Below, piece after piece: positions 4,203 to 22,669 of a DNA stretch of 64,000 bases (positions are counted from its first letter, which is position 1; every line of letters starts with the position of its first letter). The DNA lies in contig OZ017802.1 in the NCBI GenBank assembly GCA_963969395.1, positions 7,628,501 to 7,692,500 of the forward strand. The letters are read 5' to 3'. The notes below the pieces were generated by a model. It saw only the letters and a program-made list of their open reading frames with translations, did not search any database and was not told the origin of the DNA. This stretch comes from Pseudoscleropodium purum. Lineage: Eukaryota; Streptophyta; Bryopsida; Hypnales; Brachytheciaceae. The position numbers were made by a program, and so were the translations under genes.

Positions 4203-4909
4203 TCTCAATTAATTGGTTGACAGAAAAAGAAGCTCCAGTAGCACCTGTCCATTTTAGTTTTTTTTGCAATGCGCTAGGAGGAACATGAATATATTAAATT
4301 GTCCCACTGAAAACTTGGTGGGGGTTGAATTTTCAAAGATATCATACCTAATGATATCTGGAGGCCACTGTAGTTATGGCATATGAGCTCTCATCTTTGT
4401 ATGTAAAAGACTATGTGGTTGATTTCTGTTAGCAGAGAATTTTGGGACAACTAGAGCTGCATTGAAGTAGAAATCACTGGAGTGGTGTGACAGTTAGTAC
4501 TAGCACTTCTGAGTTTTTGGAAATTTAGAAATTTTGGATGTCTTTGGATGTCACATGAACATGAATTGTATCTTCATTGTATAATCATGTATCATGTATA
4601 ACATGGGTTTTCAAGTAATCAACAGGGCTGACATATTGTGCCAAATTGATATGTGGTATGCACATTCTCATCAGTCCTGAAGCAATGTCATTTGGTTTGG
4701 GGGGAGTATCATACTGACATTTCTGAGGATTAGATAGAATGAAGAAGGTGAGAATCACCCAAGTCTAGATCATCTGTTGGTGTCAGATCTGCTGCAAATA
4801 CTGTGGTATAGTAAATTTTACATGTGACTGACTTGTTGGTTTGATAACAAATGTGGCTGTTATTCAGAATTGTCCCAATTTTTACATGAAGTTGAACTTA
4901 TTTGCCCTA
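4203..4909 (+). other. 3' UTR and flank of the SPOC gene
   Basis: Non-coding and T-rich after the stop codon, and presumably holds the 3' UTR. I see no unambiguous polyadenylation signal and no reading frame of interest. Confidence 0.4.
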
Positions 4910-5510
4910 TTATATAGTGCATGTCACAAAATAACCTTACACTGAGTGTCACAAAATAAACTTACAGCAAACTGAATTTACGAGGAATATTTTTACTAAT
5001 GTAGTGCATGTTAAAAAATAAACTTACAACAAACTGAATTTACAAGGGAAGAATGTTTTTACTAATGATGTTTGTAATGACTCTTCAACTTAAGTACTAC
5101 TATAAAAAAATATATAATGGCATGTATGTTAATTTCATCATACTTTGTACAAACTACTCATAGTATAAATTTGTTCCTCCTTATTAAATAAATTATAATG
5201 GCATGTATGTTAATTTCATAATACTCCATACAAACTAATAGGAAAAATCAATGCATTGAAAGAAAATAAACTTATAGCAAACTAAATATAAACTAATAGG
5301 AGAAATCAATGCGTTGAAACAAAATAAACTTATAGCAAACTAAATATACAAAAGAGTAATATTTTTTCCCTAATGATGTTTGTAATGACTCTTTGACATA
5401 AATACTACTAATGCAAAACTGTTCCTCCCTATATAAAGTTATAATGTCATGTACATTTATTCCACAATACAAACTAATTGGAAAAATTAGTGCATTGAAA
5501 CATTTTAGGT
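4910..5510. repeat. Irregular tandem segmental duplications, AT-rich
   Basis: Several blocks recur in direct orientation with about 10 percent divergence. The phrase AAAATAAACTTA(C/T)A(G/A)CAAACT appears near 4955, 5020, 5267 and 5323. TTTTTACTAATGATGTTTGTAA is near 5055 and is repeated in similar form near 5366. ATAATGGCATGTATGTTAAT is near 5114 and again near 5197. CAAACTAATAGG(A)AAAATCAATGC occurs around 5231 and 5289. Units are nested (about 60 bp and about 300 bp), which suggests stepwise local duplication. There is no coding capacity. Confidence 0.65.
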
Positions 5511-5827
5511 GTTGGATGGATGTGGCAATGACATATAAATTTTTTTATAAGCCTTCCTATTTGTATCACAACTTAGTTTAGCCTATTTTGGTTACATTGA
5601 TTTGTCCTATAACTTTGACCTATTGATGATTGGACAAAATTACAATCAACTAAATTTTTTATTTTTGTGAAAATTGATACAATTCATTAATACATCTACT
5701 TACACTAGTTAATTGTTATACAAATGAAATGTAACTTTGGTAAATTAGTGTCACATGCTCTCATAAGATAAATCAATGTAATGCTTATCGTGCAATACTA
5801 TACTATGAAGGGAGTCACCTTAGATGG

Positions 5828-6153
5828 TAAGTAGGAGGTTCTAAAAGAACACAAGCTCTAAAACCATCCACCTCCTCAAATGTACATTATTTGTACATGT
5901 TGCTTTTTTGTAGCCTTCAGCAATATACAAACTATGTACATTATAGAAGGTGGGCAATTTTAGAGTTCAATGCCATTTCAACTTCAAAATTTCATAACTA
6001 ATTCCATGAAGCTCCCCCCAAAATGAAACAACTTGGATTAGATGCGAATTCCACTTGTCTTTCAAGGAAAATTTACCAAAATATTTCAAGAAGTTCCACC
6101 CCCCAAAATTAGTTCAAACTCTTAAGTAGTCAATTTATGGACCTCCTACCTTA
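5828..6153. mobile_element. MITE, TAAGGTAGG-ended group (subfamily F)
   Basis: The left end reads TAAGTAGGAGGTTCTAAAAG. The right end, reverse-complemented, reads TAAGGTAGGAGGTCCATAAA, giving imperfect inverted ends about 20 bp long. The element is 326 bp, with no coding capacity. The ends start with TA, as expected for a TA target duplication, and match those of the 276-bp MITEs elsewhere in the window. A related copy begins at 51868. Confidence 0.6.
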
Positions 6154-6446
6154 GTCAATTTTGTCTTTAAAGTTTGATCTCTATGTTGGCCAAATTATTT
6201 GAGTATTGTATGGTTGTTTCTAGTTAGATTGTACCTAAATGAGATCAAAGAAGGTACCATTTGCAACTCACAAAACAACAAGAAAACCGCTTTATTAGGA
6301 TTTATAATTTATACCAATGTTCAAGGGTTTATTGAAAAGTAAGTGCCATAAACAATAGTGGGGTTTGCAAAACATATTTCTTAGAAGGGATGGCAATTTC
6401 TTTTTCAAAGAAAAAAATTGGGGAGAAAAAACAAACCTTTCTATTT

Positions 6447-7345
6447 TTAACCTCCTAAAAGGACAAGAGTCCCCTCAAGGGACTTTTGAAGGTTTGGATA
6501 GGTTCCTATGATTTCAATATTTGACATGATTGTAAAAAAGAAAAGCTTATATATAAAAACTCACTAGCTTTATAGGAATATAATTTTTTTTCAATTAGTG
6601 CTTGGAAGCAAAAGTTATGCTACAAGAAGTTCAAAATAGAGGTCATTGGATAGCACAAAAAGAATTGTAAAAATTCAAAATAAAATTCTCAAAATTTTAT
6701 TTGTCATAGAAAATGTTTTTGTATACATGGAAAGCTTTGATTCATTTTATTTAGATTAATGATGAGAAATTTATGGAGAATCTTGTTTTAGGGGCAATCA
6801 AAACATCTTCTTCAAAAAATAAATTACAAGATCCATTTTAAAACTTAGATGATACAGTTTTTCAAAAAAAAGAAGTTCCACATGGTTTAATTTTCTTGCT
6901 AGAACAATCTCATTGTTGGAATTAGTGTGTTTCAACTCCATCTTAGAGATATTAATGATTTAGTTTCTTGTTCTATCTCATACCTACTTCTACTTAATAT
7001 TTTTTAAGAATGAAATTCAAATTTTTTTCACAAGACTCTTAATAAATCTTCAATATATAAAATTTTTAATTCAAAATGTATTTTGCAAGGATTTTAAGTT
7101 TTAAGAATCCAAACTCTTAAAATCAAATTCTAAGACAAGGTATACAAAAATACGTTTTTTTTTCACTTTAAATGCAAATTTCTTGGAATCTATTTGATGA
7201 AAGTCTTTGAAATTTCTTCCCTACAATCTCATACAAATCAAGTGTAAGATCCTATGGTTAGATATGCAAAAAAAAACGTTTTAACATTTTGTCCTTTGCA
7301 ATAGAAATGGTTGTTTTGAGTGTTTTTTGGTCCTTTAGAGGTTAA
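6447..7345. mobile_element. TTAA-flanked element with piggyBac-like ends (subfamily A)
   Basis: The left end reads TTAACCTCCTAAAAGGACAA. The right end, reverse-complemented, reads TTAACCTCTAAAGGACCAAA. So about 900 bp is bounded by inverted repeats of about 18 bp that start directly after TTAA on both sides. TTAA target sites and CC(C/T) ends are the hallmark of the piggyBac superfamily. There is no transposase frame, so it is non-autonomous. Its interior (for example AAGATCCTATGGTTAGA near 7250) recurs at 23814-24510, 41428-42237 and inside subfamily B. Confidence 0.65.
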
Positions 7346-11098: not shown

Positions 11099-11115
11099 TT
11101 CAAAAGCAGGGTTGA
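11099..11115 (+). repeat. 8-bp target duplication plus left terminal inverted repeat
   Basis: TTCAAAAG (11099-11106) is followed by CAGGGTTGA, the left end of the large element. The same octamer follows the right end exactly. An 8-bp duplication and a terminus of the CAGGG type (compare the CAGGG start of maize Ac) are the standard marks of hAT transposons. Confidence 0.8.
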
Positions 11116-11116
11116 C

Positions 11117-11266
11117 GAATCTCAACGTCCGCCCCAAAATAGCGTCCGTTTTCCGAACACTAGCGGACGCAGCATCCCTCCCGCCATCGGAAGGCGGACG
11201 GCCGGGGCGGTCAGGCGGACAGACCAGACGGGGTGGACGGACAGGGCGGACGGGGCGAACTTTGCA
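11117..11266. repeat. Subterminal CpG-rich CGGACG tract, left end
   Basis: A sharp GC-rich island in AT-rich DNA, built from short words such as GGCGGACGG, GGACGGACAGG and ACGTCCGCC. It lies immediately inside the left terminus and mirrors the tract at 22487-22650. Clustered short motifs next to the ends are typical binding sites for hAT transposases. Open frames across it are artefacts of its composition. Confidence 0.75.
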
Positions 11267-11562
11267 TTGCCATTAGTCATTAAAATTTTTTATATTGTTA
11301 TGTAATTTGAATGTTATACAATAAAAAATGAATGCATCCACGTAAAATAAGATGTATATATAAAAATATTTTTATACGCAAATGAAAATATAGCATCTTT
11401 ATATATAAATATATATGTATAAACAAAATACATGAAAACATAGTTCCAATATCACTATTGAATCCTATACGATCTTTTTAAGATCTAAATCTTTCACATT
11501 CTTTTTTGTTTTTAAACAATGAAAGGACCATTATTTTTAAAAAACAAAATTCTCTTCAAATC

Positions 11563-14500
11563 CTACTTTCCACCAGATGGACCACTACCTTCTCCCAAAA
11601 CAAAAGGAAAATCTGTTGTACCGAAGAGTTTAGCAGATGATTGACGAATTGACCGTTGTTGACTTGGACAGACTATTCGCCCTCCAGATTGAACTTCGAT
11701 GTCCACCTTATGAAATTGTTTCTTGGTTTCCGGAGAGAAGTCATCGTCCTCTTCACGCTTCGTTTTTTGTTTTCTTTTCGGTGATAAATCGACTTTGTCT
11801 GCCTTCAAGGTTCTCAAGTTGCTCTCCACACGATCTACCATCACTTGAACAACTTCATCATCTCCTTTCCCTTGCCATACTGTGAGGCAGTCTCCATCCA
11901 ATAGGAAAGCCTTCCAATGCCCTATAATATCGCCAATGTGCCTATCAAATGCTGCTGCCACATCTACAGATGAATGTCCTGTGCTTGTTTGTCCATTTGT
12001 ATCGTAGACAGCATGAACTTTTGCAGCGTCTTCCAACTTCGACAATAGAAGGGCCCTACCTACAAGGGTGTGGTTGTATGCCTTATACTGCTCATCGAAC
12101 TCTTTTCCATGGTTCACCTCCACCCAACTGTCTTCTGGTCCTCTCTCCACTTTTTTATCTGGAAAACGAAAGAACTTTTCGTGTTGCAAGCTCCAATGTC
12201 CCTCCATGTTGCGACAAAACATTTCGCGGGCCGCGTCATCTACGATTCCTCGAGCCCGCAATTCCACCTCTCTATTATGAGTCATCCACACATCCAAATC
12301 CAATAGTTGCTGAGATTCCTCGTACAAATTATGCCTCTGTTCATTTGCATTCCACCGGATTGGCTTCCTCCAATGTTGATAATTTTGAAATTTGTACGGC
12401 GCTTGATCAAGAGGAAGATTCCAACGATTGTATTCGTAGCTTGGAGGCATAGCTTCTAAAATACCAAACATTTCGTAGAACCTAGCACTCAATGGACTAC
12501 GACACTCACCACACACCGAACGAATGAGTGATGTTTTCACAATGCAAGTGACATGGAAAGTGTGGCGACATTGGCCCATGGTTACCGCACCTTCCGGTCC
12601 GAAGAGGCCTTGGCAAAGGCTACAACAACCATCCAAGATTGGAAAGGCTGGATCACAAGCATGCACCACTTGCTTGTCTTTCACATTGATGTGTGCTGAA
12701 AGTGTGTTGTAAGGGACCCATCCTTCCTCTACTTCCAAGGCCCAATTGATGGGTGGAGCTTGGTCCTTCTTTGTGTGGTTTAACCGTTCAAACATGGCAT
12801 CCATGTTTCTCCAACATGTGATCTCCGTATATCCCTTAGAAGGATGTTGATCAAACATAGTCTTGAACCAACTCAAAGAGCTTTGAATGGCATCGCAATT
12901 TTCATTCGACTCCATTACCAATGTTTGAAGACCTGCCATTGCTCGAGATAGTACAGAGGGTCTATTTTGGAGTCTTTGTACCCATGCTAACCATCGAGAC
13001 TCCAAGCCGCTAGATGGCATAAACTTCTTCAAATCCAAGCACAATTGCAATCGATTCAACTCGTATTCAACGATTCCTTTTGCTTCAATTGCCTCCTCTA
13101 ATTTATGCTTCAACTCTTCAAAGTCACAACTCTCCGTTTGTGTCTCCGCATTCACGTAAACGGATGAAAGTTTTTCCATTGATGGTTGTTGTGTCGCTTT
13201 TAACATGCTCATGTCGTGACTTTCTTGTACATTCACAATGGTAGGGTTGTCGCTTGCTTCGGCCTTATCAAAAGGAAGAGAGAGCTTATCTTCACTCTCT
13301 TGAGTCTCTTGACTGTTTCCGAGTACAATCACTAGTGAGATTGCAACTTCACTCGGATTCTTGGAGGTCCCTTATAATTCTACAATCCGTTTACGCATCT
13401 TCATCAACTCCTCCATTTGCCCCAATGATTGTTGATTTAAATGTTCAACCTCACTCTCCGAAGTCTTTAATTTCAACTTCAAGACTTTGCACCTTGCTTC
13501 CACTCCTCCAAGGTCAGCAATTTTCTTTTCATATTCCACCAATTGTAGTATGTGAACATCTCTTTCTTCGAAAAGTGGTCCGAAAGTCTTCGTGAGATTC
13601 TGAAATGCTATAGCACCTTTCAACATCTCTGGTGCCATGAAAGAAAACTCCTTAGCCAAATTCATAAAAGTCGGAGCAACTTTCGCTAAAAATTCAGTTG
13701 ACATCGTCATCTTGAAAGTTGTATCAAATATATGTGCAACATTCTTTGGATCTGCAAGTAGACTCATTGGAACAATAGTAGCACCATCATCGGGGTTAGA
13801 CGATCCGCCTATTTCTTCATGAAGGTTAGCAAACTGAACCGAGAGCTTCAAAAGATTTTCCAATTGTTTTAAATTGGACATATCTTGCAAGGTTTGATGT
13901 AGTGGACTTGGCAATGACGTTGTAAACGGAAACTCCTCCGCCTGCCTTTTACGCTTGGAACTCCATAATGAGGATATATTATCAATCTTCACGCCTTGTC
14001 CACGAAGCATATGTATTTTGTCTTCTAAACTTAACGTTGGACTAGATTCAACGCCTTAATGCATAGGCGGAGATTTGTAGACCAAACTATCAAAACAATT
14101 GTTGGCTATCAGAATATCAATTGTAGCATTAGCCTTTGCTACTTTCTCCGCCAAGACTTCGTCTACTTTACTTTTTGAAGTTTCCCCGCGTTCCGTGCAA
14201 ATATTGCTTTCGTTTACAAACTCCGTTTGCGTTTGTGCCGCAACATTTGATGTAAAGGTCAAACGCGTTGGAGCTGTGGAAAAGACTTCACCCTCCTACG
14301 CCTCTACATCTTTCTCTACATCTTTCCCCACATTTTTTTAAGAGCTTTCATTGATTGCTTTTGTTGGAGATTGTACAGACCGTAATTCTTCAACATTTGA
14401 GGCTTTCTCCACACCATCCGTTTTCACCTCAATAGTATTTTTTAATACTTTTTCTGTTTCTCCCTCTAAATTGTACAAGTCGGGAATGTCCTTTTGATTG

Positions 14501-14970
14501 GCTTTAAGTAGAAGTAGGCAAGCTGTTGTTGTCAGAAACGTGCTCCAATCAATCTTGCGCTCTAATATAAGTTCCGCGTAAACCATACACGCCACGCTAT
14601 AATTAATATAGCCTTTACTTTTGCACTTGTTTCCGAATAGAACACGCCACACCTCCTCAGATCGATGGACAAAATGTTTGTTGTTGCAAGTCCATGGTTT
14701 ACAACAAAAATCCCGTATATGACTCTTGTGCGACTCCTGAGGCCACAACTTGTCAATGTGGTACATTTTAACATAGGTCCTGCATATTTTTGATGTCCAA
14801 TACTCTGCATCTTCATCTTCCCACCCACTCTCTGCTTTAATTGTAGGGTCATTTAAAATGTCAAGCCGAAGGTCATGTGTAGCCCCCTTCACTTTGCTCT
14901 TCTTTTTGGCTTCGCTTCCCGGAGTCACTCCATCCATATTTCGATCACCTTTGCCGTTCATGATTGTCAA
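11563..14970 (-). pseudogene. Cargo gene 1: coiled-coil and RING-H2 protein, interrupted by in-frame stops
   Basis: One frame of 1,135 codons runs from ATG 14970 to TAG 11563-11565. It has in-frame stops at 14338-14340 (TAA), near 14298 (TAG), 14056-14058 (TAA) and 13372-13374 (TAA), and no frameshift. The longest open part is 13332-11563 (589 codons). Codons 49-150 form a domain shared with cargo gene 2 (GWEDED, YVKM.HI.KLW, MVYAELILERKIDW). The middle has charged, heptad-like stretches consistent with coiled coil (about 13400-13560). A RING-H2 finger at 12502-12624 has C-x2-C-x14-C-x-H-x2-H-x2-C-x10-C-x2-C, suggesting ubiquitin ligase activity. A basic stretch (SPKRKQKTKRE) near the C-terminus may be a nuclear signal. 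The intact zinc ligands suggest recent decay. I know no named family for the whole protein. Confidence 0.7.
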
Positions 14971-15173
14971 TTGGATTCAATAACCAATTGAAGTGAATAA
15001 AAAAATCTCACGTGATAGTCAAAAGTGATGGCATCAACTGTAACACAATAACAAAAGATAGAGGACCCCAACTCTCCACCCCGTAGGAGCAACTAGTGCA
15101 TAAAGCAATAGTAGCACATCCAACTTGGCACCGAAGGAGAATTGAAGTGAGAAGAAATGAAAGTCACTCCACC

Positions 15174-15179
15174 CTTATA
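15174..15179 (-). promoter_or_regulatory. TATA box of cargo gene 1
   Basis: On the - strand this reads CTATAAGGG, right at the gene-side edge of the CpG-rich tract and about 205 bp before the ATG. Position and spacing match the TATA elements of the two other cargo genes. Confidence 0.5.
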
Positions 15180-15418
15180 GCCGTCTGCCGCCGGACCTGC
15201 CCCGGACCACGCGAAGCGGCCCCAAACCTCGCGTCCACCGCGCGGACCGACGACGTCCGCATCGGCAGCGGACGCACCGTCCGCTCGTTGCCTCGTCCAA
15301 CCGCCGCATCCGCCCGGACTGTCCACACTGTCCGCCTTCCGACGCCGTCTGCGCTTTGTACACGCCGACCGCCCCACTTAAACACTGACCGCCGACGGCG
15401 TCCGCCCAGCTGTCCATT
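15180..15418 (-). promoter_or_regulatory. CpG-rich CGGACG tract upstream of cargo gene 1
   Basis: A GC-rich island with GTCCGC, CGGAC and GCGGACGC words on both strands. It abuts the TATA box of cargo gene 1 and ends abruptly at both sides. It shares its vocabulary with the tracts at both element ends. Several long open frames cross it in different frames, none with protein-like composition. Confidence 0.6.
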
Positions 15419-15540
15419 GGTACATCCTATGAGGCCATTATTATTCAAAAAGAGCGGTAACATTTCAAAAATAAAACAGCCTAATAATCATTGCTAAATG
15501 AGGATCAATGTAATTGATTTATCATTTAAAAAAAAAAAAT

Positions 15541-15577
15541 GTAAACCCTAAACCCTATACCCTAATTACCCTAAACC
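15541..15577 (+). repeat. Short interstitial telomere-like repeats
   Basis: AAACCCTAAACCCTATACCC is followed by further ACCCTAA variants, about four or five degenerate copies of the plant telomere word CCCTAAA. It may be a chance or microsatellite-like run, or a promoter telo-box cluster. Confidence 0.4.
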
Positions 15578-17332
15578 TTTTCTTTTCTCCCCTAAATTGT
15601 TTTATGAATGAAGGGAATGTGGTTAAGTTAAATATGTTTGGATTATTTACTTATATTATCCTTCTAAATAGGTTTTGAGCAGATCTGAAGATGGTGGGAA
15701 TTTTTTTAAAGTTCATTAGGAAATCAAATGTTTTGCAGAAATAATCAATTCCTTTTTCATCGTAAGCAAATGAAATTTTTTAAAAAGGCCCCAATACATA
15801 ATTAGAATAATAGTTTAATGGATTTCAATCTCATGATATTTAATGAAAGGTTGTGTTTTCTAATTAGAAGTGCATCACGATCTTCAAATGAACATCGAGT
15901 CTTTCATATTTTTTAATGAAATTTTGATTAGATTTGAAAACAAAGAAAAAGAATCAATGTTTTAACTTTCAAATCATGTATGGCTATATTTTTCCTTAAA
16001 AACATAGAAAAATTCGTTACTTGAGTTGGTGGAGTAGAATACATTATACACTTATACATGTGCTATATTTATTTTGAACGGTAATTCCAATATTCTTATT
16101 TCAGATGTTTTTAAATATTAACTTAAAAAAAGAGGGTTCATTATTTAAAGATCTAAAAAATTAACAAATATAATTTCTATTATAAATAGGAATTGAATTC
16201 GGAATTCGAATTTTGAAATGATTCAAATGAACAAGATATTGATTATAAAATATTTCTTTGTTTAAGTTTTCAAAATGAATTCACGAAACAATTGCAAACT
16301 TTTGAACATAGGTATATGGTATTGTTTCTGGTTTGTACTTTGTAGAGTATAATACTTCAATTTTAATCCTAAATAAATGAAAGAACTCCACATGAATGAA
16401 ATGTTTCTATGTATTGCACAAAGATTTCTACCAATTACTATGATAATTAAATACATTGTTACATTTCATAAAATATTCTACATAGAAAGAAAAAATCATT
16501 TCAGTTTTCAATCATGATAAACGATGTCTTCTACTCTTTTTGATATATGTTCATTTTGTATAACGTGTACATTGTACAATCTTTGAGAACAGGGTAGTTC
16601 ATTTTTCATTTTCAGCTCTCATTGAAATAGAAAATATATTTGTGTTAATGTGTTTGGATTTTGAAATCATTATGTATTCTACGGTCTTGCAAGAATGCAT
16701 CTTACTCCTTCCTTTGAATCCTTTTGATATTTTCTTTTTTTTCCTTTTCTTTTTGTCTCGTAGGGCTCTTATTCTCTTGTTCTCTTCATTTGACCAACCT
16801 ATTTGGCTTGGCTCTTTTCTTTTTTTTTTAATGCAATGGTTTATGCATATGTTATAAAAAATATATATTATTTATTTAAAATTAATATATTGATGAACAA
16901 ACGCATAAAGGCATTCCATTCTTTCACATTTAAAGTTATAAATCTATCATAAATCACTCTTGCAAATTTGAATGATTGAATCGAAAATTTGAAAATGTAA
17001 TTACAAGAGCTTTCAATTCAATCAATTGCATAAATCATAAATGTTGAAATGCAACTCGTATGAGTTTAGCATCTATGAAGATTAATTCATGCCATCCACA
17101 TGCAATTTTCCAATTTAATAAAATGCAATTGAGTACTTCAATTTCTTTCTTTCCAATTCTCCAAGTAACATTCACTTCATATCTTTCTCTATTTGTTTAT
17201 CTACTTTTTGGCAACAAATGGAGAAACCATCTTTGTCTATATTTGCACATGCACTCTTATTTGATTGATGAAGAATAGATCTATGAAATATATAATCATT
17301 GATTTGTTCATGTTGATTTATCTAATATATTT

Positions 17333-17336
<4 letters not shown>

Positions 17337-17365
<29 letters not shown>
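17337..17365. repeat. TA dinucleotide microsatellite
   Basis: About 14 uninterrupted TA units. Confidence 0.9.
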
Positions 17366-17367
<2 letters not shown>

Positions 17368-17569
17368 TTAAAGGAGTATGGAAGACAAGATTGACAGATT
17401 GTGTTCAAATGTTGTTGATTTTGAAATGATTTAGTACTATATCATTTATAAGAATATTATAATAGTATTATGTTATAATATTCCTAAAAAAATTGCGACA
17501 AATATTAAAATACATGCTAAGTTAGGTTTGTTAGCCTACCAATTGTTCATTAATAGACATAATTGAGTA

Positions 17570-17776
17570 GCCCCCTTAAATGAAACATTCACTATCTAAT
17601 ATCTTACAATCCAAATGGTGGATTTGTCTAAAAATTTTTCCACATCTTTTCCAACTAATTTACTACAAGATCCTACGGTTACATAGGCCCCAAAGTATTT
17701 TTCTTCTAAGACTTGGTATTTGCACTACTATTGGCAGTTTTGAAGTGCTTTTAGTGAAAAGAACTTTAGAGGTTAA
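17570..17776 (+). mobile_element. Fragment of TTAA-type element (subfamily B), right end
   Basis: It shares the phrase TACAAGATCCTACGGTTACAT and the terminal ACTTTAGAGGTTAA with the right halves of 39770-40718 and 43230-44160. The left half is missing. It lies inside the hAT-like element. Confidence 0.5.
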
Positions 17777-17844
17777 ACATTTATACCGTGAGATTTTGAA
17801 AAAAGAATAATTTGCTTCATTGGGTTTAGGGATTAAGGTGAGCC

Positions 17845-17993
17845 ATCCGCCCTGTCCGCCCCGTCCTCCGTCCGCCCTGTCCGTCCGATCCGGCGTCCGC
17901 CCTATCCGTCCCGTCCGCCCGGTTACGGCCGTCCGATTGACACGCGGACTGATGTGGTCCGCATGATCTGGACGTCCGCCTCGGGGCGTCCGC
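17845..17993 (+). promoter_or_regulatory. CpG-rich CGGACG tract upstream of cargo gene 2
   Basis: Dense GTCCGCCC and CGTCCGCC words, the same vocabulary as the element ends. It ends directly at a TATATATAT box (17995-18003) and lies about 230 bp before the ATG of cargo gene 2. Confidence 0.6.
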
Positions 17994-17994
17994 A

Positions 17995-18003
17995 TATATA
18001 TAT
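17995..18003 (+). promoter_or_regulatory. TATA box of cargo gene 2
   Basis: TATATATAT lies immediately after the CpG-rich tract, about 224 bp before ATG 18227. Arrangement and distance equal those of the other two cargo genes. Confidence 0.5.
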
Positions 18004-18226
18004 GGGGAGGCAGATGGCTCATTCCGAACAATCGTTCTCTTTTAGAGTGGGCGGACCAATGCCTTGGAAGCTCTGCGTGCCCCTTCCGCTTTGAGTGAAC
18101 GATTGTTGTGAGATTGTTACAAATTTTCACAAAATTCACGCTTGTGAAATTTTAATTAATTAATTAAATCAAAATTTTGGTTCTTAAGCTTTCTAATTGT
18201 TTCATTCTCTTTGCTTCGGCTTCATC

Positions 18227-19489
18227 ATGCCGAAAGATAGAACACCCAAAAAAAGTAGTCGAAAGGGAAGACCCCAATTGTTCGATTGGGATGCTTGGGC
18301 CGATCCATTGTGCGTGGGTGAACTGGGATGGGAAGAGGAACCAACAAGAGTGTGGGATTGCTCAATGTGCAAGAAGTATGTGAAAATGACTCACATTCAA
18401 AAACTTTGGCGACGTGAACGTGTAGAGCACCAAGCGCCACGTTGGGAAGGACAAATGTCTACGTACCAAAGTGAGCACTTCAAACAATGATACACACAAG
18501 TGCATCGAGTTCTTGGCATTAAAAGCGCCAAACCAAATATAATGAATTATAATGTTATGGCAATGGTTTGGGCAGAGATTGTACTCCACAAGGACGTGAA
18601 CTGGCGTACCGCTACAGGTCGCAATGTGGAGAACTATACGTGCACGGATGCCGTTATAGATACACAGTGGAGGGGCGCAAATGATTGCATGCCAGAGTGG
18701 TCCAATCGAGGTTATCTACAACAACCTTCAGTTGTTCTATAAGATGCTGAAGATGCGTGGACAGATGACGATGATGACGATGATATGCAAGCGCCTGTCA
18801 CATTTGGAGTTAGGCACAAGCGGGTAAAAGAACGAGAACGAATTGAATTCGAACAACAAATGCAAGAGGCAACACGCAGAAGCCTTCAAGATCGTGGATG
18901 GCAAGATAGGCATGGTAGGTCCTACAGACGTGAACATGGAACGCGAGAATCTGAACAAGGAAGAGGTGGTTCATACTCTGGTTACGATCCTCAAAATAGA
19001 TATGAAGGTGGAAGAGGGAGCTATGGATCCATGCATTATGGTGGTTCAAGTGCAGTTGGTTCTCATTATGGCACTCCCCCTGAAATTGGCTCTCAAGGTG
19101 GAGCAGGTAGCTATGACAACACGCACTATGGTAGGTCTAGTGGATCTGGTTCATATTATACGACGCCCACTTAAGTGGGCTCCGAAGGTAGTGGAAGAAG
19201 CCATGTAACCCCGTAGTATAGTTGCTCTTTTTACGAAAGCGCCCAATACTATCCGGGATCAACTAGAAGTGATTCATACGGGTATCATGGGGCCTCTTAT
19301 TATGGGGCTTCAAATGAAAGAGGATCAGAGCCTATTATTCCGGTTCTTCTTCCTACTTTTGGAGGTTCAAACTATGGACAAGGAGGTGCACCGAGTGGAT
19401 ATCACGGAAACTACGGAGGTGATCCGTTCATTGGAGTACAAAGAAGAGACAACGGTCAACAATTTGAGTCCGATTCAGATTCCGAATAA
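18227..19489 (+). pseudogene. Cargo gene 2: shared-domain protein with Gly/Tyr/Ser-rich tail, interrupted by in-frame stops
   Basis: A single frame of 420 codons runs from ATG 18227 (MPKDRTPKK, basic like the start of cargo gene 3) to TAA 19487-19489. In-frame stops are TGA 18488-18490, TAA 18740-18742, TAA 19172-19174 and TAG near 19217. There is no frameshift. Codons 34-130 align with codons 49-150 of cargo gene 1: GWEEE, W..C..C..YVKM.HI.KLW..E, HF, RVL, NYNVMAMVWAEIVL, VNW.T. A cysteine pair (CSMC) is present. Next come an acidic run (DDDDDDD), a charged helical segment (KERERIEFEQQMQEATRR) and a low-complexity tail rich in YGG, GGS and SYG, resembling prion-like tails of RNA-binding proteins. 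The product ends in an acidic SDSDSE. The function is unknown to me. The likely role is element-encoded or captured and spread with it. The frame is too consistent to be chance despite the stops. Confidence 0.6.
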
Positions 19490-20090
19490 AAAAACATGCA
19501 AGTATATAGTGAGCATGTATTTGCTCAATTTTCTCATTTTTACTCTCATGACAAGTATAGAGCACTAGATTGGTAGAAGTAGTACAAAATTTTAAATGAA
19601 TAGAACAATTTTGAACAACAATTTTGTTCACATTTTCAAAAAGTGTTGTGTAATAGTGTACACCAAGTATGTATGTAGGCAAGCATATTGTTGAAGACAT
19701 CATTGTATTATTTTATAATAGCGTTGATGTATAAGGCTATAAGCGACTTTGATAAATAATAAAAATATGAAGAAGAAATGTAACTTTGTAAGAGCCATAT
19801 TATGTCTATTTTTGAATTTAGCATTCGAGGTTAAATATGTACTAGCATGGTGTGAATTTTGAAATTATTGTTGTGTGTTTATTACATTTAGAAACTTGTA
19901 AATGGTATAAATGTATTTCTAATTAATTTATGAAAGATTGAATTATTTGAATATTTAAAATTTTTTTATTTTTCATTCAACGATTGCTAAAAACTAAAAT
20001 GATTTCTTATTTGTATGAAGAAATGCCCAAATTAGACAATTAGTGGTTCTTCTTTAGATTCTATTTTCAAATATGGAAAATAAATCGTAT
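19490..20090. other. 3' flank of cargo gene 2
   Basis: AT-rich non-coding sequence with AATAAA-like words (near 19487 and 19756) that could serve polyadenylation. No other feature seen. Confidence 0.4.
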
Positions 20091-20375
20091 CGGGCGGACG
20101 CTTGATTTGTCCGCCCGTGGCCGTCCGATCGGGCAGACGCGGCTGTAGGGTTTCGGGGAGGCAGACGACTGATGCGTCCGCCAGCCGCAACCCGTCCAAT
20201 TGGACGGACGGTTTGGGGCCGTCCGCCGCTACCCGTCGGATCGGGCGGACGCCAGATTTGTCCGCCCGTGGCCGTCCAATCGGGCGGACGGGGCTCGAGG
20301 GTTTTGGGGAGGCGGATGGCCGATGCGTCAGCCAGCCGCAGCCCGTCCGATGGGGCAGACGGGCCGTCCACACCT
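20091..20375 (+). promoter_or_regulatory. CpG-rich tract upstream of cargo gene 3, with internal tandem duplication
   Basis: Two direct copies with a period of about 151 bp: CGGGCGGACGCTTGATTTGT starts at 20091 and CGGGCGGACGCCAGATTTGT at 20242. Each is followed by CCGCCCGTGGCCGTCC and a GGGTTT(C/T)GGGGAGGC motif. The tract ends at a TATAAG box and lies just upstream of the kinase-like gene. It has the same word content as the four other tracts. Confidence 0.7.
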
Positions 20376-20381
20376 TATAAG
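20376..20381 (+). promoter_or_regulatory. TATA box of cargo gene 3
   Basis: TATAAG lies at the end of the CpG-rich tract, 222 bp before ATG 20598, followed by a short GGGCGGACGG block. Confidence 0.5.
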
Positions 20382-20597
20382 AGGGGCGGACGGGCCGTCC
20401 GCATTGTCACTTTTGCTTTGCCCCTTGTGAATGCAAGGTGGAGCAGAGAGCTTGGTGGTTCGTTCTCCATTGGCTCCTTTCCGAGGCAAGGCAAGAGTGG
20501 TTTATTGGGGCCCCCTTGTTGCCAATTTTTTGGACACTTGTGCGTGAATTCAATTTTAAATTAAAAAATTTGATCGATATCAGTTTCATTTGTCACA

Positions 20598-21887
20598 ATG
20601 CCGAACGGGAAGAAGAAGGTTGCAAAGCTTAAACATAGAGAGGGACCATCAAACTTGAAGGTAGCTCGCCAAAGTCCTTCGGAAGAATGCAAGAAATTCA
20701 TGATCGAGCGCATCGTTCAATTTTATGAATCGGAAACAACATTGTCTTTAGACAATAAATACATCAGATATCAAGAGGAGTGCATGTCTAAATTCAAGGT
20801 AGACATGACACAAATGTTGTTGGATGCATTGAATATGGCGAAGTGGCATAACGAAATGCATAAAACGCACTTCACCAAATGTTTGGAAAACAAGGTTCAT
20901 GACGCTTTGTGGAATTCCAAAGTCATTTTGGTTAAATATGGCAAGGAATATCGACCCAATGACGCCCAGTTTGAAGAAGTGATTCTGAAAGCGGACTTAT
21001 TTAGGGGGCGATGTGCTCCATTCGCCAAAAAGCACAATCGAGTTGGTTCAATTGGTTGGTGGAAAAGCAATGATGGAGTTGCTGAAGCGGAAAGGACCAA
21101 ACGGCACCTCATCGCACTTCCAAATACAACACGCGTGATTGCTATTGATGTTAGAACGATGAGAGGTGGATATGCAACGATTCGAAAGGTTCGTATTGAA
21201 GGATGTCCAGGAATACTTCCTTATTCGGAGTTTGTGGCAAAAAAAACCATTCACCACCAAACTCGACCCGATTTTGCAAAGTTAGAACATCAAAACGAAT
21301 CAATGGCTGTTCGAATTCCACACGCGGGTGTGATACGGTTTGTTGCGATGTACGGAACGACGTGTGAAGGTTATGCGTATTGGTGGAATGGTGGAACTCT
21401 TCGACAAATGTTGAATATGGATAAGGACTTTCCAGACAACATTCAAATCCGTTTGATGTATACGAATCCAACCGAAGAGGAGGTTGTAAAAACTCATCAT
21501 TTAGGACGATATCGGAAGAAGCACACGGAGTTGACATGGGCGTTTATGCATATAATGTATGCAGTGCATGTTGTTGGACATTTGCACAATGATCTTTCTC
21601 CGGACAACATCTTGTTGCATTTTCCAGAGGATGAGTCACGTGTGTACATTGGAGTTTGCGATTGGGGTATGACCACCTTAGCTTCTCAGCCAATGAAGTC
21701 TTTGTACACATTCACATCAGCAGATGAGATAAAACAGACTTTGCAGAGGAGATGGTGGGTGGATCCACGTATTGCATATTTGCATAAATCAGGTGCAGAT
21801 GTGGAAGTCATTCCGATGTATTCACGTAAGTCGGAAAAGTATACTATTCGAAAAATTGCTCTACGGATGAATGGAAACAACATGTGA
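20598..21887 (+). CDS. Cargo gene 3: protein-kinase-fold protein
   Basis: An intronless frame of 429 codons. ATG 20598 lies in a CACAATGCCG context and gives a basic N-terminus (MPNGKKKVAKLK). Residues 1-165 match nothing I know. The kinase core follows: a weak Gly-rich loop (MRGGYATIRKVRIEG), the ATP-binding lysine in FVAKKT (about residue 215), a helix-C-like glutamate, a catalytic loop HNDLSPDNILLH (about residues 330-341) and the metal-binding CDWGM (Asp about 355). The catalytic Lys, Asp and Asn and the DxG are present, with DWG instead of DFG, so activity is plausible. In frame after the TGA at 21885-21887 a further 67 codons continue (21888-22088, stop 22089-22091: ETYFNLLLKTPS...), reading like the C-terminal lobe. 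The TGA therefore probably truncates an originally longer protein of about 496 residues. It carries one stop where gene 2 has four. Confidence 0.7.
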   Translation: MPNGKKKVAKLKHREGPSNLKVARQSPSEECKKFMIERIVQFYESETTLSLDNKYIRYQEECMSKFKVDMTQMLLDALNMAKWHNEMHKTHFTKCLENKVHDALWNSKVILVKYGKEYRPNDAQFEEVILKADLFRGRCAPFAKKHNRVGSIGWWKSNDGVAEAERTKRHLIALPNTTRVIAIDVRTMRGGYATIRKVRIEGCPGILPYSEFVAKKTIHHQTRPDFAKLEHQNESMAVRIPHAGVIRFVAMYGTTCEGYAYWWNGGTLRQMLNMDKDFPDNIQIRLMYTNPTEEEVVKTHHLGRYRKKHTELTWAFMHIMYAVHVVGHLHNDLSPDNILLHFPEDESRVYIGVCDWGMTTLASQPMKSLYTFTSADEIKQTLQRRWWVDPRIAYLHKSGADVEVIPMYSRKSEKYTIRKIALRMNGNNM

Positions 21888-22091
21888 GAGACGTATTTCA
21901 ACTTGCTACTTAAAACACCTAGTGCGACACAATTTGCCTTTCATTACTTTGCAAAAGTATTTTATACTTATTTGAAGCGCATTTCTTCGAAGATTGACGA
22001 TGAAAATACTAGTTTGGCCCATGTAATTACGCAATTTTCTAATACATATCGTTGGCCGATGCCAGATGAACATTTCCGCCATTTATATTAG
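21888..22091 (+). pseudogene. In-frame C-terminal continuation of cargo gene 3
   Basis: The same frame as the kinase-like gene stays open for 67 codons after the TGA and closes with TAG at 22089-22091. Its content (FHYFAKVFYTYLKRISSKID) is protein-like and amphipathic. A single CGA-to-TGA or TGG-to-TGA change would explain the break. Whether the stop is a true end or a lesion cannot be settled here. Confidence 0.5.
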
Positions 22092-22486
22092 ATTGGTAGT
22101 GCAGTAGTAGTTGAATAGGTTATATAGGCATTAAAAATTAGTTTAGAAATATAGAGTTGAAATGAAAAAAATTATATGTGCAATTAGCCAAATGTGCACA
22201 ATGTATGGTATTCTATATTAAATTCAATACATTTTGCCCATATTGATTATGTTTGTATTTGTGTTGATCTTGATTTTTTAAATAATATATATATATTTGA
22301 AGTCACAAACTTTTTTAGTTTGCCTTCTGAAAATGAATTGGAATTTTTTCATAGTTTCAAGAGTATCATGGACTCATGGTCAAACTTTATAATCTTTCAA
22401 CTTATAAGAGACATTGTTTTAATAACAAATTGCGAACCATTGCACTTCATTTAACATTTAATTGTTTAAAGATTAAGGGAATGACC
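22092..22486. other. 3' flank of cargo gene 3
   Basis: AT-rich non-coding sequence between the kinase-like gene and the right subterminal tract. Nothing else recognised. Confidence 0.4.
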
Positions 22487-22650
22487 GCGGGGCAGTTTGA
22501 GTAGGGCGGTCGGGGGAAATAGGGCTGTCAAAGCAGACGGGGCGGACGGACGGGGCGGACGGGGTGACAGGCGGACGCTGCGTCCGTCAGGACCGCGAAT
22601 GTCAGCGAACACTGCGGACACAGCGTCCGCGTCCAGACGTCCGGACGTCG
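22487..22650. repeat. Subterminal CpG-rich CGGACG tract, right end
   Basis: GGGCGGACGG and GGACGGGGCGGAC words next to the right terminus, the counterpart of 11117-11266. The last part (ACGTCCGGACGTCG) is palindromic. Confidence 0.75.
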
Positions 22651-22652
22651 TA

Positions 22653-22669
22653 TCAACCCTGTTCAAAAG
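22653..22669 (-). repeat. Right terminal inverted repeat plus 8-bp target duplication
   Basis: TCAACCCTG (22653-22661) is the inverted copy of the left end, followed by TTCAAAAG (22662-22669), identical to the left flank. Confidence 0.8.

What the first reader, a model, noticed from the sequence alone, without database searches (positions are those of the whole stretch)
11099..22669. An 11.6-kb hAT-like element carrying three genes and no visible transposase
Ends CAGGGTTGA/TCAACCCTG and an exact 8-bp flanking repeat TTCAAAAG bracket three intronless genes. By composition the chance of an 8-bp match exactly at two inverted termini is of the order of one in tens of thousands. Non-autonomous hAT elements this large with what looks like a recurrent gene set would be unusual and may be an undescribed cargo-transposon family.
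Basis: partly seen in the sequence, partly recalled or inferred. Interest (0 to 1): 0.88.

Follow-up and report, generated by a model that had tools for sequence, protein, structure and literature searches.

The report
Gene-carrying hAT transposon of a moss
This is a worn-out copy of a very abundant jumping element of a moss that carries three genes of its own but no transposase, and that shares its ends and its kinase gene with a sister element that does carry one.

Summary
Window 11107-22661 is an 11,555-bp element with CAGGGTTGA/TCAACCCTG ends and an exact 8-bp duplication. Its family is huge in this unnamed 313-Mb genome (inferred: a moss): 3,181 left and 2,925 right ends match, miniature elements included; reversed-pattern controls 0. 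Three gene regions recur in one order and spacing: A (zinc-finger-like N-terminus plus RING), B (same N-terminus, low-complexity tail; missing from some copies) and C (kinase-like). All three are broken by stop codons here; scored matches elsewhere include stop-free ones.

The partner was found. L039 is a 9,545-bp sister with the same ends, AT-rich middle and kinase gene, a hAT transposase where gene A sits, and no gene B. Of 98 scored kinase matches, 23 have a hAT domain at that place and 17 have gene B, none both (lists capped). A GTCCGCC motif, absent from the rest of the window, forms arrays at both ends and before every gene.

Best reading: a two-part hAT system whose transposase-free class moves in trans. 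What A, B and C do is inferred. No earlier description appeared in the searches made.

The parts
11099..11106 (.). 8-bp target site duplication, left (TTCAAAAG)
11107..22661 (.). whole element, 11,555 bp
11107..11115 (+). left terminal inverted repeat CAGGGTTGA
11126..11262 (.). left subterminal GTCCG/GTCCGCC motif array
11563..14961 (-). gene A region: zinc-finger-like N-terminal domain shared with B, RING-H2 finger, conserved C-terminus; 4 in-frame stops in this copy; true start codon not settled
15174..15179 (-). TATA-like box, -218 from the assumed gene A start codon
15190..15405 (.). motif array upstream of gene A
15410..17830 (.). AT-rich noncoding middle, shared with the transposase-bearing sister element (aligned stretch 15316-17824, 94.9%)
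17854..18056 (.). motif array upstream of gene B (similar to the middle of the ~300-bp miniature elements), with TATA-like box at -232/-230
18227..19489 (+). gene B region: N-terminal domain with conserved C-x2-C ... C-x3-H, then low-complexity G/S/Y-rich tail; 4 in-frame stops in this copy
20093..20405 (.). motif array upstream of gene C, with TATA-like box at -222
20598..22091 (+). gene C region: protein-kinase-like protein of 497 aa; one in-frame TGA at 21885-21887 in this copy
22541..22646 (.). right subterminal motif array
22653..22661 (-). right terminal inverted repeat (TCAACCCTG on +)
22662..22669 (.). 8-bp target site duplication, right (TTCAAAAG)

Best explanation
It is a decayed copy of the non-autonomous class of a two-part hAT family of a moss. 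T-type elements carry a hAT transposase plus kinase C. A-type elements, this one included, carry gene A where the transposase would be, usually add gene B, and keep kinase C. Both types share the two ends and the AT-rich middle, and small (~300-bp) derivatives have the same ends. The T-type transposase moves all of them. Shown: common ends, 8-bp duplications, recurrent gene order, one complete T-type copy, and no overlap of transposase and gene B in the scored lists. Inferred: mobilisation in trans. The three genes are not passengers: each sits behind an array of the same motif found at the termini, so one DNA-binding protein of the system (the shared A/B N-terminal domain, or the transposase) probably acts on ends and promoters together. 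I think it most likely that A/B bring a RING ubiquitin ligase and the kinase to element chromatin or to the transposase, to keep the element expressed or to tune its movement. That last step has no direct test here (about 0.35 likely).
For: Ends and duplications. Eleven duplications fit the hAT preference nTnnnnAn, a consensus recalled and not from a call (T at position 2 in 9 of 11, A at position 7 in 6 of 11, P 0.0008). Sister L039: exact duplication GTCCCGCC, same left end 84%, middle 94.9%, kinase region 95.2%, DUF659 (E 1.3e-21) and Dimer_Tnp_hAT (E 3.5e-9). A-type layout: 17 B-C pairs at 2.2-2.6 kb and 11 A-B pairs at 3.2-3.7 kb, none in another arrangement; B and transposase never by the same kinase (17 and 23 of 98, 0 both; the other 58 have neither in these capped lists). 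Motif: GTCCGCC 23 times in the element, 0 in the 52 kb outside it; 49 of 54 GTCCG in five arrays. Kinase: K217, E236, D334, N339, D357, read as the catalytic residues, invariant in 38 aligned homologues. No stop inside the match: C 40 of 98, 37 of them in frames of at least 483 aa; B 17 of 100; A 8 of 54, over the P0072 part only. pN/pS of 15 stop-free kinases: median 0.40, neutral simulation 0.64.
Against: All copies whose genes were aligned have broken genes and look dead; 77% of 832 private changes are C>T or G>A. Gene B is cleanly missing from 2 of the 10 copies (C43_393k, C41_3041k) and not whole in others, so it is not needed in every element. A TAA at codon 57 of gene A is shared by 5 of 9 aligned rows, two of them an inverted duplicate, so some copies moved without gene A as I read it, or its true start lies downstream. 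The selection signal on C is modest: 36 of 105 pairs, which are not independent, fall below the neutral 2.5% bound. The TATA-like box of C is seen in 3 of 10 other copies only. Movement in trans was not observed. L039's transposase was read as two open frames; splicing was not tested. No binding, ligase or kinase activity was tested. The fold of the A/B N-terminal domain matched nothing.
Confidence: 0.72

Rival explanations
1. Captured host genes (Pack-type cargo): A, B and C are ordinary moss genes picked up by a hAT element and carried as passengers.
For: Kinase and RING domains are common in plant genomes (recalled); homologues occur in other sources, including two annotated proteins of Ceratodon purpureus. 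Gene B is missing from some copies.
Against: The same motif array stands before each of the three genes, gene order is fixed in the scored lists, the kinase is also in the T-type sister, and one Ceratodon kinase cluster (KC19_VG055000) has 126 member sequences, which looks like a repeat rather than a single host gene.
Confidence: 0.08
2. Regulators of transposition only: the motif arrays are transposase-binding sites as in other hAT ends, and A, B and C regulate the transposase (activity, stability, promoter feedback) without touching host silencing.
For: Arrays sit at both subterminal regions and before the transposase gene itself in L039; hAT transposases are known to bind subterminal repeats (recalled).
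Against: Does not explain why the elements without a transposase are the ones that carry A and B. Not excluded by any result here.
Confidence: 0.35
3. Self-sufficient element: one of A, B or C is an unrecognised transposase and the element needs no partner.
For: A is long (about 1,130 codons) and most of it has no Pfam match.
Against: A sister with the same ends carries a hAT transposase exactly where A sits. A contains a RING finger and C a kinase domain.
Confidence: 0.04
4. Chance structure: unrelated inverted ends and a chance 8-bp match.
For: None found.
Against: Thousands of matching ends with control 0, pairing on C1, long collinear copies at about 93%.
Confidence: 0.005

Closest known systems
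hAT superfamily DNA transposons (Ac/Ds type; recalled)
   Same: Short CAGGG-type inverted ends, 8-bp duplications, DUF659 and hAT dimerisation domains in the sister's transposase, an internal-deletion derivative (L029) and miniature elements with the same ends.
   Different: The sister carries a kinase gene beside the transposase. The window class carries three non-transposase genes, two of them (A, B) absent from the sister L039, each behind the element's own motif array.
VANDAL elements with VANC anti-silencing proteins, Arabidopsis (PMC5735166, passages read; PMC10398659, search listing only)
   Same: Element-specific short motif accumulated in arrays in noncoding regions, rare elsewhere; accessory genes.
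   Different: VANDALs are a different superfamily (recalled). No sequence comparison of A or B with VANC was made. Motif binding and loss of methylation are reported for VANC; nothing comparable was tested here. The arrays here also sit at the termini.
TET/JBP-carrying DNA transposons of fungi, including hAT7 (PMC12730594; abstract and section 3.1.2 read)
   Same: A hAT lineage carrying an accessory enzyme gene thought to counter silencing.
   Different: One accessory dioxygenase beside a transposase, 7-bp duplications; no transposase-free class with its own gene set is mentioned in the parts read.
ToxhAT, 14-kb transposon of fungi (PMC12506042, search listing only; hAT-like by its name)
   Same: Large element with non-transposase cargo.
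   Different: Listed for one cargo gene of interest in fungi; the present family has thousands of ends in one moss genome, with genes that look built in.

Membership tests
hAT superfamily | 8-bp target site duplication | tested here: met
   12 elements, 10 exact and 2 with one mismatch; 6 of the 10 copies lack a matching pair
hAT superfamily | short inverted termini of CAGGG type | tested here: met
hAT superfamily | hAT transposase within the element | tested here: not met
   none found in 11107-22661; the window copy is filed as a non-autonomous member only
hAT superfamily | an autonomous relative with the same ends encodes a hAT transposase | tested here: met
   L039: DUF659 and Dimer_Tnp_hAT, same ends, exact duplication; autonomy itself not tested
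hAT superfamily | catalytic acidic triad and cut-and-paste activity | not tested
   residues not mapped; activity needs an experiment
VANDAL/VANC-like anti-silencing systems | element-specific motif arrays in noncoding regions | tested here: met
   specificity tested against the rest of the window only
VANDAL/VANC-like anti-silencing systems | encoded protein homologous to VANC | not tested
   no VANC sequence was compared; Pfam scan of the B family gave only weak matches (best E 0.0054, zf-C3HC in 3 of 21)
VANDAL/VANC-like anti-silencing systems | encoded protein binds the motif and removes silencing marks | not testable with these tools
   needs binding and methylation assays
Pack-type gene capture | internal genes derive from host genes elsewhere in the genome | tested here: inconclusive
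   protein searches scored 98, 54 and 100 element-like matches; a single host parent was not looked for among the unscored candidates

The most novel reading that the evidence does not exclude
A moss hAT family has split into two interdependent element classes. One brings the transposase, the other a RING protein and a zinc-finger-like protein, and both bring a kinase. The A/B domain reads a family-specific GTCCGCC array at ends and promoters and recruits ubiquitination and phosphorylation to counter host silencing or to license transposition: a transposon counter-defence module built from signalling enzymes, kept across mosses.
Probability: 0.3. Interest if true: 0.88.

Novelty: new variant of a known kind. 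Interest (0 to 1): 0.76.

Why it matters
Large non-autonomous transposons often carry random host fragments (recalled). This family carries a recurrent set of its own genes, without the transposase, at high copy number, beside a sister class that supplies the transposase. It gives a concrete system for asking how transposons divide labour between element types, and whether a transposon can use a ubiquitin ligase and a kinase against host silencing. Homologues of all three proteins in other sources, Ceratodon among them for the kinase, suggest that it is old and widespread in mosses.

Tried and rejected
Chance origin of the ends: rejected. One of the encoded proteins as transposase: rejected in favour of the L039 type. 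Two other hAT transposase groups as partners: their 3' regions end differently (L030-L032 diverge after CCAACAC(T/A)GG, L033/L036 and L035/L037 after GGTAACCAAAGC), so they are not the partners; L034 was fetched but its end was not reached. The 2,733-bp pair on C1 as a new carrier: rejected, it is a 274-bp miniature element (exact GTGCAAAA duplication) next to a left-truncated kinase piece. Internal arrays as copies of whole termini: only short matches. Relatives of the kinase in viral contigs and prokaryote genomes: none (71 and 228 pattern matches, none confirmed; A and B not searched there). Fold of B: N-terminal domain at pLDDT about 75-92, no structural match. Fold of A: poor model, not used. 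Empty site of this insertion in its own genome: only the two halves found. Empty sites of other copies: not answered. Gene A start: not settled because of the shared codon-57 stop. Rows left out of the stop counts because shorter than 95% of the gene: 2 of 11 for A, 2 of 8 for B, 0 of 11 for C. Earlier description in print: not seen in the listings, an open-licence library only.
Full report
What was checked. The window is G000:C46:7628501-7692500 of an unnamed 313-Mb genome in 52 contigs. Relatives of the encoded kinase include two proteins named from Ceratodon purpureus, so I take the host to be a moss; that is an inference. The ends CAGGGTTGA (11107) and TCAACCCTG (22661) and the exact TTCAAAAG repeats are as described. 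The left 302 bp matched 41 scored places (2,409 candidates, of which the tool scored the best 40). Of these, 39 begin at query positions 2-14, the window's own copy begins at 1, and 1 begins at 56, so the terminus, at position 9, is a family boundary.

Family size and pairing of the ends. A 27-base left-end pattern with up to 2 mismatches matches 3,181 places, and a 24-base right-end pattern 2,925 places; the same patterns read backwards match 0. These counts include miniature elements, so they are not counts of 11.6-kb elements. The listings show only the first 100 places. On contig C1, with exact matches only, 71 left and 100 right ends gave 25 inward pairs within 25 kb against 6 same-strand and 6 outward pairs, and 2.0 expected when right ends are placed at random. 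Fourteen of the 25 measure 227-335 bp; four lie at 11.6-12.6 kb, and the 12.6-kb and the 6.4-kb pair share one right end. One pair (2,733 bp) turned out to be spurious when read. One (5,757 bp, L029) is an internal-deletion derivative with an exact ATTCCAAT duplication.

Copies. Ten further copies were fetched. Eight of them have long collinear matches, about 93% identical, in both the left and right parts; C46_18639k and C42_1238k are strongly rearranged. In two of the eight (C43_393k, C41_3041k) the match jumps from element position 6718 to about 9127, so gene B is cleanly missing; gene B is whole in 5 of 10, partial in C48_16673k and C46_18639k, and not found in C42_1238k by the gene search. 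Of the 10, four have both ends with an 8-bp duplication (three exact, one with one mismatch); six do not, through rearrangement, chimerism or non-matching flanks. Small elements of 274-314 bp with the same ends sit in or beside copies, five of them with duplications (four exact, one with one mismatch). The uninterrupted element sequence is the empty site of the four nested ones. Eleven duplications show the hAT-like preference T at position 2 (9 of 11) and A at position 7 (6 of 11), P 0.0008 against base composition; the consensus nTnnnnAn is recalled, and L039 is not among the eleven.

The three genes. Gene A (11563-14961, minus) is one long frame in a relative: P0072 runs through what are three separate frames here. 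It has a RING-H2 finger (Pfam zf-RING_11 1.3e-5, below its curated cut-off; profile match to RNF24, E 4.2e-7). Gene B (18227-19489) has an N-terminal domain with C-x2-C and C-x3-H (C79 and H83 invariant, C44 and C47 in at least 90% of 21 sequences) and a low-complexity tail. The N-termini of A and B are homologous (41% over 83 residues, E 3e-16); calling the domain a zinc finger is my reading of the conserved C and H. Gene C (20598-22091) is kinase-like: Pfam Pkinase matches the window protein at E 6.1e-5, below its curated cut-off, and 37 of 38 relatives at E up to 0.01; K217, E236, D334, N339 and D357 are invariant. In the window copy A has 4, B 4 and C 1 in-frame stops. Every one of the 9, 6 and 11 rows aligned (the window's included; shorter rows left out, 2 for A and 2 for B) has at least one stop; the means are 6.0, 3.2 and 4.3 in frame against 11-81 in shifted frames. 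Private changes are 77% C>T or G>A, and most stops arise from CAA, CAG, CGA and TGG, as expected if silenced and methylated copies decay; methylation itself was not measured. A TAA at codon 57 of A is shared by 5 of 9 rows, two of which are an inverted duplicate.

Stop-free copies. Protein searches of the genome scored 98 kinases (1,483 candidates), 54 gene A (1,817) and 100 gene B (1,385); 40, 8 and 17 have no stop inside the match. For C the match covers residues 1-429, and 37 of the 40 lie in frames of at least 483 aa; for A it covers only the P0072 part. Fourteen of the stop-free kinases, picked by me, and L039's gave a median pN/pS of 0.40 over 105 pairs. A neutral simulation with the observed mutation spectrum and no nonsense gives 0.64, with a 2.5% bound of 0.35, and 36 of 105 pairs fall below that bound. 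The pairs are not independent. So there is some purifying selection before decay; the signal is modest.

The partner. hAT dimerisation domains are abundant: 150 scored of 664 candidates. Compared by coordinates, 23 of the 98 kinases have such a domain 5.4-7.3 kb upstream on the opposite strand, 1 has one on the same strand, and 0 downstream. Reading one of them, L039 (C1:2680500-2690490), gave a complete element of 9,545 bp. It has the same left end (84%), the same AT-rich middle (element positions 4210-6718, 94.9%), the kinase region (95.2%, stop-free), the same right end (82%) and an exact GTCCCGCC duplication. On the minus strand, where gene A sits in the window element, it has two frames with DUF659 (1.3e-21) and Dimer_Tnp_hAT (3.5e-9); genes A and B are absent. 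Its middle ends at the same position 6718 as in the two copies without gene B. In the scored lists, gene B lies 2.2-2.6 kb upstream of 17 kinases on the same strand and in no other arrangement within 12 kb. Gene A lies divergently 3.2-3.7 kb from 11 gene B copies and in no other arrangement. No kinase has both gene B and a transposase (17, 23, 0 of 98; 58 have neither in these lists). Gene A lies 5.8-6.1 kb upstream of 5 kinases and at 9.4 and 13.3 kb from 2 more; it occurs once in another arrangement, and the kinase with gene A at 13.3 kb also has a hAT domain nearer by. All these counts rest on capped lists.

Motif arrays. GTCCGCC (either strand) occurs 23 times in the element and not at all in the 52 kb of window outside it. 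Of 54 GTCCG in the element, 49 lie in five arrays: both termini and before A, B and C; base-shuffled sequences average 10.7, at most 21 in 200. In the window copy a TATA-like box lies at -218 (A), -232/-230 (B) and -222 (C), downstream of or at the edge of its array. The boxes of A (8 of 10 other copies) and B (6 of 9) are mostly kept; that of C is seen in only 3 of 10. In L039 the transposase gene too has an array (-530 to -321) and a TATA-like box at -255; its kinase has the array but no TATA match. The miniature elements join left end, a piece like the array before B, and right end.

Interpretation. The structure is well supported: a hAT family with a transposase-plus-kinase class, a class with gene A, usually gene B, and the kinase, deletion derivatives and miniature elements, all with common ends. 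Movement of the second class in trans follows from that but was not observed. Why the genes are kept is inferred. Shared arrays at ends and promoters suggest that one DNA-binding protein of the system serves both, with the A/B domain and the transposase as candidates. VANC proteins of Arabidopsis are a precedent for element-specific motif arrays read by an anti-silencing protein (PMC5735166, passages read). A hAT lineage carrying a TET/JBP enzyme is a precedent for accessory enzymes (PMC12730594, abstract and section 3.1.2). I make no claim of homology to either.

Limits. No other moss genome could be searched. No empty site for this insertion is available. The autonomous class rests on one element read in full plus 23 coordinate matches, of which it is one. 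Functions of A, B and C are read from domains. Absence of an earlier description rests on nine searches of an open-licence library.

Noticed in passing
G000, e.g. C49:5100342/5121885, C46:392460/405915, C45:21388701/21401561, C41:18786688/18815475, C49:6071590/6082483, C41:19636026/19653544: Many element genes come in opposite-strand pairs with identical scores some 7-62 kb apart: inverted duplications, or an assembly artefact.
   Followed up: no
L030, L031, L032 (C43:22905600, C41:30107500, C42:22619500): A second hAT group with closely similar copies whose 3' sequence diverges after CCAACAC(T/A)GG; a different family from the one reported.
   Followed up: partly
L033/L036 and L035/L037 (C41:24150450-24155450, C41:27013150-27018150): A third hAT group with a long acidic low-complexity C-terminal tail; two copies 99.6% identical over 2 kb, which suggests recent movement.
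   Followed up: partly
L036, about C41:24152850: Another element end, TTTGACAACCCTG on the strand read, behind a run of GTCCGTCC repeats: a further family with similar ends and motif.
   Followed up: no
C46:7698972-7706090, about 6.5-13.6 kb beyond the window's right edge: A hAT domain and a kinase gene in the T-type arrangement lie close to the window.
   Followed up: no
element position 6718 (window 17824), in C43_393k, C41_3041k and L039: Copies without gene B and the transposase-bearing sister share the same edge of the middle region, which may mark where gene B was gained or lost.
   Followed up: no
5' extensions of P0008, P0015, P0018, P0060 and window 20405-20597: The leader before the kinase gene seems conserved in distant homologues, read by eye from translated upstream stretches.
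   Followed up: no
C43_5263k (L009/L010) and C48_16673k (L025/L026): These element copies are interrupted by 3-5-kb insertions with 5-6-bp overlaps of the flanking matches, possibly LTR retroelements.
   Followed up: no
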